From positions 1 through 63,730 of the forward strand of contig JAGHVD010000068.1 of the NCBI GenBank assembly GCA_018064475.1: 63,730 bases of DNA, in the 5' to 3' direction. Position 1 is the stretch's first letter. Each line of letters opens with the position of its first letter. Below the pieces are notes generated by a model. It saw nothing but the letters and a program-made list of their open reading frames with translations. It made no database searches and was not told where the DNA came from. Positions 3,718 through 8,152 of the stretch are shown here, one piece after another. The position numbers and the translations under genes were made by a program. The stretch is from Candidatus Scatonaster coprocaballi. Lineage in GTDB: Bacteria > Bacillota > Clostridia > Saccharofermentanales > Saccharofermentanaceae.

Positions 3718-3744
3718 TTAGCACTCTACCTTTCTGAGTGCTAA
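3718..3744. promoter_or_regulatory. CIRCE operator (HrcA binding site)
   Basis: TTAGCACTC, nine bases, GAGTGCTAA: an exact match to the canonical CIRCE inverted repeat with the canonical 9-bp spacer. The symmetry extends three more bases on each side (3715-3747). It lies directly downstream of the -10 element of the hrcA promoter, so bound HrcA would block initiation or early elongation. Confidence 0.98.
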
Positions 3745-5124: not shown

Positions 5125-5868
5125 TTACTCCGCCAACACCTGCTGCAATGCGTGATCTAACGCGACTTCGAATTTCTTGAAGCTTGGGGAGACATTATGT
5201 TCCGGAAGCATGTACGGTGAGATCTTCTCCGCCCACTTCGCTTTGTACTGCCCAACAGCCGGATACCCGATCTGCTTGATGCGGTCAGACTGTTCACCCA
5301 GGACCACATCGCATAGCACCTCCCAAGTGCCACAGATACTATCCTGTTCATAGGATTTCAGAATATCCAGATCCGCCTCCGGATAAGCCATGGTCAACGC
5401 ATTCTGATCCGCGAGCATCCAGCTCTCCATCTCTTCCACCGAGACCGCAATGACGGTCCGAATACCCGGTCCATAGGTTCGGCAGATGGTGCGCAGTTTA
5501 TTGAAGATCTCTCCTGGATCATTACTATCCGAATCCATGCAGACCACAATGATCGTAGCCGTACCGGCATAGACGTGGTCATACGCACGAAGTTTCGCCG
5601 GAAGCAGTTCGCACAACCCTGATGCATAGGGCTGTGGCTTCATCTCCGGCTGATTGGAGAAATATCCACATCCGCGATGCGGACGCAGGTAGCAGTTATA
5701 CGACTTCGTATGACGCCGCACGATACACTCCGTCAGACGCTGGAGCACCAATCCGCCAGAACGGTCTTCACAAAGAAGCTCGACGCGTAGCGGCAGCACA
5801 CCGGCAGATGGCGAAGTCTGCGCTGATGCAACAGTATCTTTCATTTTTCGGTCTTCCACTTTGCTCAT
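5125..5868 (-). CDS. TOPRIM-like (DUF4276-type) protein, ATPase partner
   Basis: A 247-residue protein that I place in the DUF4276-like group by motif, not by a search. After about 26 unstructured residues it reads VELLCEDRSG (acidic Glu34-Asp35), then a hydrophobic strand ending VVCMDSDSNDPGE (Asp112, Asp114), then VSVEEMESWMLAD (Glu145, Glu146, Glu148). An early Glu, a DxD strand and a downstream acidic cluster are what a TOPRIM nuclease fold provides for metal binding. The start codon overlaps the stop of the upstream ATPase gene by ATGA, so translation is coupled and the two products probably act together. Pairs of this build occur in anti-phage systems (for example the ATPase/TOPRIM pair of PARIS). 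Nuclease activity is inferred only. The long spacer to the next gene is absent: hemW begins one base later. Confidence 0.6.
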   Translation of the reverse strand: MSKVEDRKMKDTVASAQTSPSAGVLPLRVELLCEDRSGGLVLQRLTECIVRRHTKSYNCYLRPHRGCGYFSNQPEMKPQPYASGLCELLPAKLRAYDHVYAGTATIIVVCMDSDSNDPGEIFNKLRTICRTYGPGIRTVIAVSVEEMESWMLADQNALTMAYPEADLDILKSYEQDSICGTWEVLCDVVLGEQSDRIKQIGYPAVGQYKAKWAEKISPYMLPEHNVSPSFKKFEVALDHALQQVLAE

Positions 5869-7070
5869 GATTCACCTGATTCGCCCATATCGTCAAAATG
5901 ACCCGCATACCAGATGGCGCCCATCCCGACGCCTTGCTTATACATCTCTGAGACAATGGCCGAAGAGGCCGCGCAGGAGATCCCGACCTCGTCTTCATCT
6001 CCACGGCTGAACACCCAGATCTCGTCCGGCGCCAGGTTCTCAATAATATACGGGTTATGTGTCGTAAAGATGATCTGGCACTTCGGATGCGAGATCGTGA
6101 AGTTTCTCATCTCAGAAGCCAGCGCATCGACCATATCGTGGTAAAGTCCTTCATCCGGCGATTCGATAAGAAGAAGCGGACGCGGATTCGGGTCCGAAAG
6201 CAGAAGCAGATACAGGGCAAGAATATCCGGCTTCTTGAAGAACTTCAGCACGGCTTCTTCATTTTTCTTACGAAGGCCCGGGATCGACTCGATCAGGCGC
6301 GAGATCAGCTGTTCATAGAGAGCCGGCTGCTCCTTCTTCATGTAAAGAAGTACATTGCGAGCATTGGTGCCCTCTGCATTGAGATGCTTATGTCCACCCG
6401 GTGCGACATCATCCGGCAACGCCTGTGTATTCTCTTTCTGGAAACGAACGAAGAACCACATACCGATCTCTCGATATGTACTTCCGATGAAGTGATACTG
6501 CTTCAATGCACCATAGGCGCGCAACGCGGAAGTCTGCGGATCGTTCATCTCGCCTTCTGACTTCTCACCCTGACAGAATACGAAGCCTACGCCATTCTTG
6601 AAATGAAGGATCTCCTGAGGTGCCTCCATATCCTTGCGCCACAGGCGAAGAGTCTCTTCCTCGAAATGTGGCTTACCATGTACATTCGGTGCCAGAACCA
6701 GTTCATATTCACAATATGTCTTCGGATAATTCTCCGTCTTCGGAAATAGGAAACAGAGCGTTGCCTTGATGGGCTGATCTTTATCGATCAGAAGATTGGT
6801 AAAACCACTTCGTTCCGATTCGACCGAGGCAGCCGCAGGTCCTGAGATGACCGTTGACTGCACAAATGACAGGAAGGAGAAGAACATCGACTTTCCGGAG
6901 TGATTCCGGCCGATCAACGCTTCCAAAGAAGAGAGCGGAAATGCCAGGTCTACGCCTGCGCCTAAAGCAAGCGATGACTGCTCCGGAGCCTTACGGATAT
7001 CGTCCATAAGTGCGCCAATGCAGTCATCACTGAATAAACCATAATTTTGAATTCGAACGCCCAGTAACAT
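5865..7070 (-). CDS. AAA (ABC/OLD-like) ATPase, TOPRIM partner
   Basis: A 401-residue ATPase of the AAA_21/SMC-like type. The Walker A motif is GRNHSGKS (residues 54-61), the Walker B region is LLLIESPDEGL (299-309) and the H-loop is TTHN with His338. In this family the Walker B usually reads IEEPENGL; here the second Glu, the catalytic base position, is Ser304, which may weaken hydrolysis. The N-terminus VRIQNYGLFSDD is the usual opening strand of this fold. I start at the ATG at 7070, with GAGG nine bases upstream; the frame is open to a TTG at 7133 but that has no ribosome-binding site. Its stop overlaps the TOPRIM-like gene (ATGA). A housekeeping role cannot be excluded, but a two-gene defence module is the best explanation. 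Confidence 0.65.
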   Translation of the reverse strand: MLLGVRIQNYGLFSDDCIGALMDDIRKAPEQSSLALGAGVDLAFPLSSLEALIGRNHSGKSMFFSFLSFVQSTVISGPAAASVESERSGFTNLLIDKDQPIKATLCFLFPKTENYPKTYCEYELVLAPNVHGKPHFEEETLRLWRKDMEAPQEILHFKNGVGFVFCQGEKSEGEMNDPQTSALRAYGALKQYHFIGSTYREIGMWFFVRFQKENTQALPDDVAPGGHKHLNAEGTNARNVLLYMKKEQPALYEQLISRLIESIPGLRKKNEEAVLKFFKKPDILALYLLLLSDPNPRPLLLIESPDEGLYHDMVDALASEMRNFTISHPKCQIIFTTHNPYIIENLAPDEIWVFSRGDEDEVGISCAASSAIVSEMYKQGVGMGAIWYAGHFDDMGESGES

Positions 7071-7142: not shown

Positions 7143-7610
7143 TTATTTTAACTCTTTCTTGTCTTTTTGGATACGGACCAGAAGATCGGTCAGCTCATTT
7201 TCCAGTTCAGAGAGTCTTTTCCTCGCATAATCGATTGCACGGGAATAAATCTCTTCAGACTGTTGGTTCGCTTCGGTCAGGATCCGCTCACTGGACTCCT
7301 TCGCCAGCTGGGTGATCTGGTGCTCATCCACCATGATAGCCTGACGCTGCTCAGACTCACGAAGAATACTCTCTGCCTTCTGGCGGGCCGAAGCCACGAC
7401 CTGACGCTGCTGATCTACGATCCACTTTGCCTGCTGGACTTCCGACGGGAAGCTCGCGCGGATCTGCTTGATCCAGTAAAGTGCATCGGCACGGTCAACC
7501 AAGCAGTTGTCCGAGAACGGCACACCCTTCGCCTGTTCGATCGTCGCCTGCAACTGATCTAACAATTCATATAGATCCTTATCTGTTGTTCTTACATTTC
7601 CTTCCGGCAT
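7143..7610 (-). CDS. Coiled-coil protein (V-ATPase H/DivIVA-like)
   Basis: A 155-residue, highly charged protein that is almost entirely helical from residue 45 on: repeated Ala/Gln/Glu/Arg heptads such as QRQVVASARQKAESILRESE and SSERILTEANQQSEEIYSRA predict a long coiled coil, like subunit b/H stalk proteins and DivIVA-like proteins. No enzyme motif. The ATG at 7610 follows AGGGAGG on the mRNA side. It begins 14 bases after coaD, and short coiled-coil proteins of this type commonly follow coaD in Clostridia. Function unknown; a structural or divisome-associated role would be a guess. Confidence 0.7.
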   Translation of the reverse strand: MPEGNVRTTDKDLYELLDQLQATIEQAKGVPFSDNCLVDRADALYWIKQIRASFPSEVQQAKWIVDQQRQVVASARQKAESILRESEQRQAIMVDEHQITQLAKESSERILTEANQQSEEIYSRAIDYARKRLSELENELTDLLVRIQKDKKELK

Positions 7611-7624
7611 ATGAAAACCTCCCT

Positions 7625-8122
7625 TTATGCCTTCCCATCGCGCATTTGTTGTACTTTACGATGGACCATATCCTCTACGGCCGGCACCACCATTCTGGAG
7701 ATATCGCCGCCATAGTTCGCAACTTCCTTAATGATGGAGGAAGAGGTGAACGTAAGCTCTGCCCGGCAAGGCAGGAAGATCACCTGGTACTCTGGATACA
7801 TCAAGGTATTCGCCGCATTCATTTCCGACTCATATCGGAAATCCGATTCGCTTCGAAGGCCACGCACCACTGCGGAAGCTCCGAATTCCTGATACACCTC
7901 GACCATAAGGTTATCACGGGCCACCACTTCTACGTTCGGTACATCCTTCAGACAGATCTTGATCATCTCGATCCGTTCTTCCACGCTAAACATTGCTTTC
8001 TTGGCGCTGTTATTCATCACGGCCACCACCAGCTTATCGCAGATCTTCGCTGCGCGCTTCGCGATGTCCAGATGGCCCAATGTGAAAGGGTCGAAACTAC
8101 CTGGGAAAATGTACGTCCGCAC
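7625..8122 (-). CDS. coaD: Pantetheine-phosphate adenylyltransferase
   Basis: Penultimate step of coenzyme A synthesis: 4'-phosphopantetheine plus ATP gives dephospho-CoA. The nucleotidyltransferase signature FPGSFDPFTLGH is at the N-terminus (T/HxGH class), followed by VVRGLRSESDFRYE and the family end motif LTFTSSSIIKEVANYGGD. I choose the GTG at 8122 as start because AAGGAG lies seven bases upstream, giving 165 residues, the usual length; an ATG eight codons upstream (8146) has no ribosome-binding site. It follows rsmD by about 30 bases; rsmD-coaD is a widely conserved pair. Confidence 0.96.
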   Translation of the reverse strand: MRTYIFPGSFDPFTLGHLDIAKRAAKICDKLVVAVMNNSAKKAMFSVEERIEMIKICLKDVPNVEVVARDNLMVEVYQEFGASAVVRGLRSESDFRYESEMNAANTLMYPEYQVIFLPCRAELTFTSSSIIKEVANYGGDISRMVVPAVEDMVHRKVQQMRDGKA

Positions 8123-8152
8123 GATGTCACTCCTTCTTTGTCGCATAGTTGC

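What the first reader, a model, noticed from the sequence alone, without database searches (positions are those of the whole stretch)
5125..7070. ATPase plus TOPRIM-like (DUF4276-type) pair set in a housekeeping operon: candidate phage-defence module
Seen: two genes overlap by ATGA; the first has Walker A GRNHSGKS, Walker B IESPDEGL and H-loop His338, the second has Glu34, a DxD (112-114) and an acidic EExE cluster (145-148). They lie between coaD/coiled-coil genes and hemW, places normally held only by core genes. Known: OLD/AAA_21-type ATPases paired with TOPRIM nucleases act in phage defence (OLD, Gabija, PARIS). Inference: this is such a two-component system, compact and probably mobile between genomes. 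The missing second Glu of the Walker B (Ser304) is a further peculiarity that may mark an inactive or sensor-type ATPase.
Basis: partly seen in the sequence, partly recalled or inferred. Interest (0 to 1): 0.72.

Follow-up and report, generated by a model that had tools for sequence, protein, structure and literature searches.

The report
Defence-type nuclease pair turned core gene
Two neighbouring genes that look like a mobile anti-virus system (an ATP-binding switch plus a DNA-cutting-type enzyme) have been inherited at one fixed place in a housekeeping gene cluster through an order of gut and rumen bacteria; the switch has repeatedly lost its ATP-splitting residue while the enzyme's active site stayed intact, which suggests a defence system adopted for permanent cell use.

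Summary
In detail: an AAA_21 ATPase (A, 5865-7070, minus) overlaps a DUF4276-like protein (B, 5125-5868, minus) by ATGA, just upstream of hemW. Both match PADLOC's candidate defence system HEC-01. A folds as an OLD/Rad50-type ABC ATPase. B's best-covered structural match is the Toprim region of class 2 OLD nucleases.

The pair is not mobile here. In GTDB order Saccharofermentanales it is single-copy at the same place (A-B-hemW): 108 of 109 genomes of the window's family with an assembled hemW, 137 of 188 order genomes. Trees follow family lines, distances track hemW, and dN/dS is low. In the window's family a restriction marker occurs in 9 of 58 genomes, this pair in 58 of 58. Relatives elsewhere are rare and scattered: plasmid, prophage, phage contig, and a separate canonical HEC-01 pair in a defence island of a sister species.

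The Walker B glutamate is present in 11 of 11 outside relatives but lost in 38 of 46 order members, while Walker A and B's acidic residues and lysine are invariant.

Best reading: a domesticated split-OLD pair, an ATP-binding regulator over a Toprim nuclease. Cellular role untested; vertically kept defence remains possible.

The parts
5865..7070 (-). Gene A: OLD/Rad50-type ABC ATPase (AAA_21; PADLOC HEC-01A), 401 aa, catalytic Glu and ABC signature degenerate
   Evidence: AlphaFold2 pLDDT 90 and fold matches to TsOLD, GajA, PtuA, retron Eco8 OLD, SMC/Rad50 heads
5125..5868 (-). Gene B: Toprim-type protein (DUF4276-like; PADLOC HEC-01B), 247 aa
   Evidence: AlphaFold2 pLDDT 95; best-covering structural match is the C-terminal region of class 2 OLD, 6nk8 Z 9.3 over 167 residues
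5865..5868 (-). ATGA overlap of A stop and B start (probable translational coupling)
   Evidence: sequence
6888..6911 (-). Walker A GRNHSGKS, A residues 54-61
   Evidence: K60 in 41 of 41 orthologues
6144..6167 (-). Degenerate Walker B IESPDEGL, A residues 302-309; Ser304 replaces catalytic Glu
   Evidence: Glu in 11/11 outside relatives, lost in 38/46 order members
6057..6059 (-). H-loop His338 of A
   Evidence: 44 of 46 order members, 11 of 11 outside
5767..5769 (-). Toprim glutamate E34 of B
   Evidence: 46/46 order members and 11/11 outside relatives
5527..5535 (-). DxD motif D112-S-D114 of B
   Evidence: 46/46 and 11/11
5425..5436 (-). E145-E146-M-E148 cluster of B (candidate second-metal ligands)
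   Evidence: all three Glu in 46/46 order members; E148 also 11/11 outside
5242..5244 (-). K209 of B, candidate counterpart of OLD catalytic lysine K562
   Evidence: 46/46 order members, 9/11 outside; K562 role from PMC6755086
3909..5123 (-). hemW, constant downstream neighbour of the pair
   Evidence: TIGR00539 325.6 bits; adjacency
7143..7610 (-). Uncharacterised coiled-coil-type protein, upstream neighbour in the window's family
   Evidence: no Pfam/NCBIfam match; synteny
7625..8146 (-). coaD, upstream neighbour in the window's family
   Evidence: TIGR01510; synteny
3718..3744 (+). Perfect CIRCE element before hrcA, separating the heat-shock unit from the A-B-hemW unit
   Evidence: 0 mismatches, 0.03 expected with up to 3 mismatches; promoter-like site 3777-3749

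Best explanation
The pair is a split OLD-type nuclease module (HEC-01-like: separate OLD-like ABC ATPase plus Toprim protein) that entered the chromosome of an ancestor of the order Saccharofermentanales directly upstream of hemW and has since been inherited vertically as a core, operon-embedded gene pair. Proposed mechanism (inferred): A dimerises or oligomerises as an ABC/Rad50-like head, binds nucleotide through its intact Walker A, and serves mainly as a nucleotide-responsive scaffold that holds or releases B, rather than as a fast ATPase. B is the effector, a Toprim metal-dependent nuclease or nickase. The pair therefore probably acts as a conditional cutter or processor of nucleic acid tied to cell state (nucleotide level, stress or DNA damage) rather than as a mobile anti-phage cassette. 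Shown: gene structure, fixed position, vertical inheritance, purifying selection, retained B residues, repeated loss of A's catalytic Glu. Inferred: complex formation, nuclease activity, nucleotide gating, cellular role.
For: Fixed position: A-B directly upstream of hemW in the 40 loci inspected from four families and in 79 of 80 named GTDB loci, the other having an insert. Prevalence: 108 of 109 family genomes with hemW (my count), against HsdR in 9 of 58 and a canonical DUF4276 elsewhere in 1 of 58. Junction: genomes without the pair have it cleanly closed. Trees: the 11 outside relatives lie on one side; f1 and f4 are each one clade in the A, B and hemW trees. Distances of A and B to hemW correlate at r 0.81; hemW to hrcA 0.75. 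Selection: dN/dS A 0.036-0.17, B 0.042-0.09, hemW 0.09-0.17. Composition like the neighbours. B active-site-type residues invariant and A catalytic Glu lost in 38 of 46, at least 3-4 changes. Fold matches. Precedents: GajA is reported to bind but not hydrolyse ATP; Cran1 is a vertically inherited OLD with a cell-cycle role (PMC12796447).
Against: The pair has been lost repeatedly (at least 8 presence/absence changes on the hemW tree) and cleanly, even within the window's family (G028), so it is dispensable, as a defence system would be. A diverges faster than B (31% against 42% mean identity between families), as a sensor in an arms race might. B's Toprim assignment rests on a modest structural score within 1 Z unit of unrelated Rossmann-like folds, no significant Foldseek hit and a non-significant profile alignment, though in the expected register. 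The second OLD acidic ligand (E404, at +4 from the Toprim Glu) has no counterpart at B residue 38. No biochemical or expression data exist here.
Confidence: 0.5

Rival explanations
1. Vertically retained anti-phage defence: the pair still works as an abortive-infection or DNA-cutting immune module (like Gabija or PARIS) and is kept in the chromosome of this order because it pays against phage, not because it has a housekeeping job.
For: Family membership of HEC-01; relatives on a conjugative plasmid, a prophage and a phage contig and in a defence island; repeated clean loss; faster divergence of the sensor-like A.
Against: Near-universal single-copy retention in a family of several genera, against patchy defence genes in the same genomes; fixed locus and hemW-like distances; low dN/dS in A; no other defence genes at the junction, and inserts there are polyamine, signalling or other genes.
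Confidence: 0.35
2. Degenerate passenger: a defence system captured once and now decaying in place; loss of the ATPase residues marks decay.
For: Loss of catalytic Glu and ABC signature in A; multiple losses of the pair.
Against: Walker A and all B catalytic-type residues invariant across families; dN/dS well below 1 in both genes; full-length open frames for both genes in the 40 loci aligned.
Confidence: 0.05
3. Functional partner of HemW (heme delivery or related protein maturation) rather than a nucleic-acid enzyme.
For: A-B-hemW linkage survives rearrangement of the upstream flank (SPFH side in f2-f4, coaD/coil side in f1), and B and hemW often overlap by 4 bases.
Against: Genera without the pair keep hemW; relatives outside the order are not beside hemW in those inspected; fold and residues point to OLD-type nucleases.
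Confidence: 0.08

Closest known systems
PADLOC candidate system HEC-01 (HEC-01A AAA_21 ATPase + HEC-01B DUF4276)
   Same: Same two-gene order and adjacency; A matches HEC-01A at 6.6e-61 and B matches HEC-01B at 8.5e-57; B acidic residues shared with mobile relatives.
   Different: Fixed, single-copy, vertically inherited beside hemW; catalytic Glu and ABC signature lost in the window's family; a genuine HEC-01 pair with intact motifs sits separately in a defence island of a sister species. No experimental paper on HEC-01 was found in the library.
OLD family nucleases, class 1 (TsOLD, P2 Old) and class 2 (BpOLD, GajA)
   Same: ABC ATPase fold (6p74 Foldseek 6e-12, Z 18.5) and Toprim plus helical-domain fold of the C-terminal region (6nk8 Z 9.3, 6njv 8.5); Toprim Glu, DxD, a later Glu and a Lys in comparable order.
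   Different: Two polypeptides instead of one; no GajB helicase next door; no counterpart of E404 at +4; sequence similarity to the Toprim domain not significant.
PARIS (AriA/AriB, split class 4 OLD)
   Same: ATPase and Toprim nuclease on separate adjacent genes; A has a weaker AriA match (5.4e-14).
   Different: B has no DUF4435 match; PARIS is a defence system, this pair is a fixed chromosomal locus.
Cran1 (class 5 OLD of Sulfolobales, PMC12796447)
   Same: An OLD-type enzyme inherited vertically through one order and not obviously a defence gene; precedent for domestication.
   Different: Archaeal, ATPase and nuclease in one protein, with active ATPase; here bacterial, split, and with degenerate ATPase.

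Membership tests
PADLOC HEC-01 | Adjacent HEC-01A and HEC-01B genes | tested here: met
   Model matches 6.6e-61 and 8.5e-57, ATGA overlap
PADLOC HEC-01 | Patchy, mobile or defence-island distribution expected of a defence system | tested here: not met
   Fixed at hemW in 108/109 family genomes; 79/80 loci. The feature is met by outside relatives and by the second pair in G012
PADLOC HEC-01 | Protects against phage | not testable with these tools
   Needs phage challenge; no experimental report found
Pfam DUF4276 (PF14103) | Score above the gathering cut-off of 30.2 bits | tested here: not met
   Window B 22.6 bits; two relatives just pass; outside relatives pass
OLD nuclease family | OLD/Rad50-type ABC ATPase fold with Walker A and H-loop | tested here: met
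   Fold searches; Walker A lysine in all, H338 44/46
OLD nuclease family | Catalytic Walker B Glu and ABC signature for ATP hydrolysis | tested here: not met
   Ser304; signature Ser/Gly replaced (FKK); 38/46 order members lack the Glu. Class 2 GajA is itself reported to bind but not hydrolyse ATP
OLD nuclease family | Toprim domain with Glu, DxD and further acidic and Lys residues | tested here: inconclusive
   Residues invariant and best-covering structural match is the OLD C-terminal region, but Z is within 1 of unrelated folds and the profile alignment is not significant
OLD nuclease family | ATPase and Toprim on one polypeptide | tested here: not met
   Two genes; a split is known in class 4
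Gabija | GajB UvrD-type helicase next to the OLD gene | tested here: not met
   Neighbours are coil/coaD and hemW
PARIS | DUF4435 AriB partner | tested here: not met
   No DUF4435 hit for B
Retron OLD effectors (class 3) | Reverse transcriptase and ncRNA beside the OLD gene | not tested
   The adjacent genes are accounted for, but no RT or RNA search was run

The most novel reading that the evidence does not exclude
A whole bacterial order has converted an OLD-type anti-phage ATPase-Toprim pair into permanent cell machinery, repeatedly turning the ATPase into a non-hydrolysing nucleotide sensor while keeping the nuclease site intact: a bacterial, split-gene counterpart of archaeal Cran1.
Probability: 0.4. 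Interest if true: 0.75.

Novelty: new variant of a known kind. Interest (0 to 1): 0.56.

Why it matters
The OLD enzymes characterised before Cran1 are all described as bacterial or phage proteins implicated in antiviral defence (PMC12796447). A vertically inherited, near-universal, single-copy pair in a bacterial order would show that such systems can be domesticated in bacteria too. It also offers a natural series, from intact mobile ATPases through intact fixed ones to degenerate fixed ones, to test what ATP hydrolysis is for in OLD modules. And it warns that pipelines which call HEC-01 will label a core gene of these organisms as a defence system.

Tried and rejected
Mobility: composition, copy number, synteny and trees all argue against it for this copy. 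Defence hotspot at the hemW junction: rejected, since pair-less genomes have a closed junction and the three inserts found carry polyamine, signalling or other genes. Membership of the CIRCE heat-shock unit: rejected, since a perfect CIRCE and a promoter-like site lie between hemW and hrcA. Apparent absences in the window's family: six of seven are missing contigs (no hemW either), only G028 is a true clean loss; G179 is a truncated contig. Sequence profile link of B to OLD Toprim domains: expected register (E34, DxD) but p about 0.02, not counted as proof. PDB sequence searches with B gave nothing credible; Foldseek with B gave nothing under 1e-3. Papers on DUF4276 or HEC-01: none with experiments in the open library. 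A TTG start upstream of A was not adopted: conservation starts at the ATG at 7070 (M1 in 37 of 41).

Full report
WHAT IS THERE. Gene A (window 7070-5865, minus; 401 aa) and gene B (5868-5125, minus; 247 aa) overlap by ATGA; B ends one base before the annotated start of hemW. A hits Pfam AAA_21 (3.7e-16); B hits DUF4276 only below the curated cut-off (22.6 against 30.2 bits). In PADLOC both hit the candidate system HEC-01 strongly (A 6.6e-61, B 8.5e-57).

WHERE IT OCCURS. Record titles of the relatives (Saccharofermentans, Mageeibacillus and unnamed rumen and gut Clostridia) place the window in what GTDB calls Saccharofermentanales; the order name is my own knowledge. B is present in 137 of 188 genomes of the order, nearly always in one copy, and A is present or absent together with B in the 59 genomes searched for both. 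By my count, 108 of the 109 family-f1 genomes with an assembled hemW carry the pair; the other six negatives lack the hemW contig as well. In the three other families it is present in 14 of 34, 8 of 9 and 7 of 22 hemW-bearing genomes, mostly all-or-none by genus. No sampled genome of another order in the class had a match with the single sequence; with the profile, 7 of about 390 phylum-level genomes did.

THE LOCUS. In the 40 loci inspected from four families A-B lies directly upstream of hemW, in most followed by hrcA-grpE (in one, L075, hemW is on the opposite strand). In 80 named GTDB loci B is next to hemW in 79; the remaining one, and G145, have a 6-7 kb insert of polyamine or signalling genes. 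In f1 the upstream side is nrdR...recG-rsmD-coaD-coil; in f2-f4 it is usually M28 peptidase-NfeD-SPFH. Thus A-B-hemW stayed together when the other flank was rearranged. Genomes without the pair have SPFH-hemW or, in G028, coil-hemW closed up. A perfect CIRCE separates hemW from the hrcA heat-shock unit, so the pair is not part of that regulon.

VERTICAL INHERITANCE. Eleven relatives from outside the order lie on one side of a branch in both the A tree (support 100) and the B tree (92); f1 and f4 are each one clade in the A, B and hemW trees. Pairwise distances of A and B correlate with hemW at r = 0.81, as well as hemW does with hrcA (0.75). dN/dS is 0.036-0.17 for A and 0.042-0.09 for B, against 0.09-0.17 for hemW and about 0.05 for recG. 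GC matches the neighbours. Controls in the same 58 family genomes: HsdR in 9, a canonical above-cut-off DUF4276 at another place in 1, this pair in all 58.

RELATIVES ELSEWHERE. The outside relatives inspected always come as A-B pairs but in unrelated places: a conjugative Pseudomonas plasmid between secretion genes and the relaxase, a Rahnella prophage between antitermination and lysis genes, a gut phage contig, and other genomes of the phylum next to assorted genes, one with a HEC-04-like ATPase. None is beside hemW. In the sister species G012 a second, canonical HEC-01 pair with intact signature and Walker B sits next to a type IV restriction helicase and a GmrSD nuclease, about 27 kb from the fixed pair. 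So the wider family is defence-associated and mobile; the hemW-linked lineage is not mobile.

FOLD AND RESIDUES. A (pLDDT 90) matches TsOLD, retron Eco8 OLD, GajA, PtuA and SMC/Rad50 heads. B (pLDDT 95) has alternating beta-alpha topology with E34 and the DxD at strand ends and a C-terminal helical part. VIA-align puts the C-terminal region of BpOLD first (Z 9.3, 167 of 198 residues, rmsd 3.9), with XccOLD at 8.5; unrelated Rossmann-like folds follow at 8.7 and below but align only about 100-133 residues. Foldseek alone had no significant hit and the profile alignment to OLD Toprim sequences was in register but not significant. In BpOLD the metals are held by E400, D455/D457, E404, T506 and E508, and K562 is catalytic (PMC6755086); B has E34, D112/D114, E145-E148 and K209 in the same order, but nothing acidic at the E404 position.

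THE ATPASE. The position of the catalytic Walker B glutamate is Glu in 11 of 11 outside relatives and in 8 of 46 order members; it is Thr, Ser, Ala, Asn, Gln or another residue in 38, needing at least 3-4 changes on the A, B or hemW tree. The ABC signature S-x-G is intact in all 11 outside relatives and lost throughout f1. Walker A is untouched and the H-loop His is kept in 44 of 46. This is what an ATP-binding regulator with weak or no hydrolysis would look like, as reported for GajA.

INTERPRETATION. Shown: a fixed, vertically inherited, constrained split-OLD-type pair with a preserved effector site and a repeatedly degenerated ATPase. Inferred: that A gates B by nucleotide binding, that B cuts nucleic acid, and that the role is now cellular. 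Cran1 in Sulfolobales is the precedent for a vertically inherited OLD protein with a cell-cycle role (PMC12796447). The main rival, a defence system simply retained by descent, is not excluded: the pair is dispensable, lost several times (at least 8 presence/absence changes), and A diverges faster than B.

Noticed in passing
L238:3603-10950 (G012:C21, about 27 kb from the fixed pair): A sister species carries a second, canonical HEC-01 pair (AAA_21 with intact SDGT and DEPE motifs plus DUF4276) beside a PLD/ResIII/DUF3427 type IV restriction enzyme and a GmrSD nuclease: a defence island near the fixed pair.
   Followed up: yes
window 7143-7610: The coiled-coil-type gene between coaD and A has no Pfam or NCBIfam match, yet is among the most constrained genes here (dN/dS 0.01-0.045, 79-92% identity within the genus).
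   Followed up: partly
window 3718-3744: Perfect CIRCE operator between hemW and hrcA, with a promoter-like site at 3777-3749, marks the start of the hrcA-grpE heat-shock unit; the element is found in many related loci.
   Followed up: yes
L208:4530-10177 (G166): A polyamine-type gene cluster (decarboxylases, agmatinase-like, saccharopine dehydrogenase-like, by reading the sequences) is inserted between B and hemW.
   Followed up: partly
L105 (G040): The hemW-like gene of this pair-less genome is strikingly divergent (24% identity to the window's, very long branch).
   Followed up: no
L188:7704-9663 (plasmid pGLE121P3): An A-B pair with intact ATPase motifs sits between type IV secretion genes and the MobF relaxase of a conjugative plasmid from glacier ice, a likely cargo position.
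   Followed up: partly
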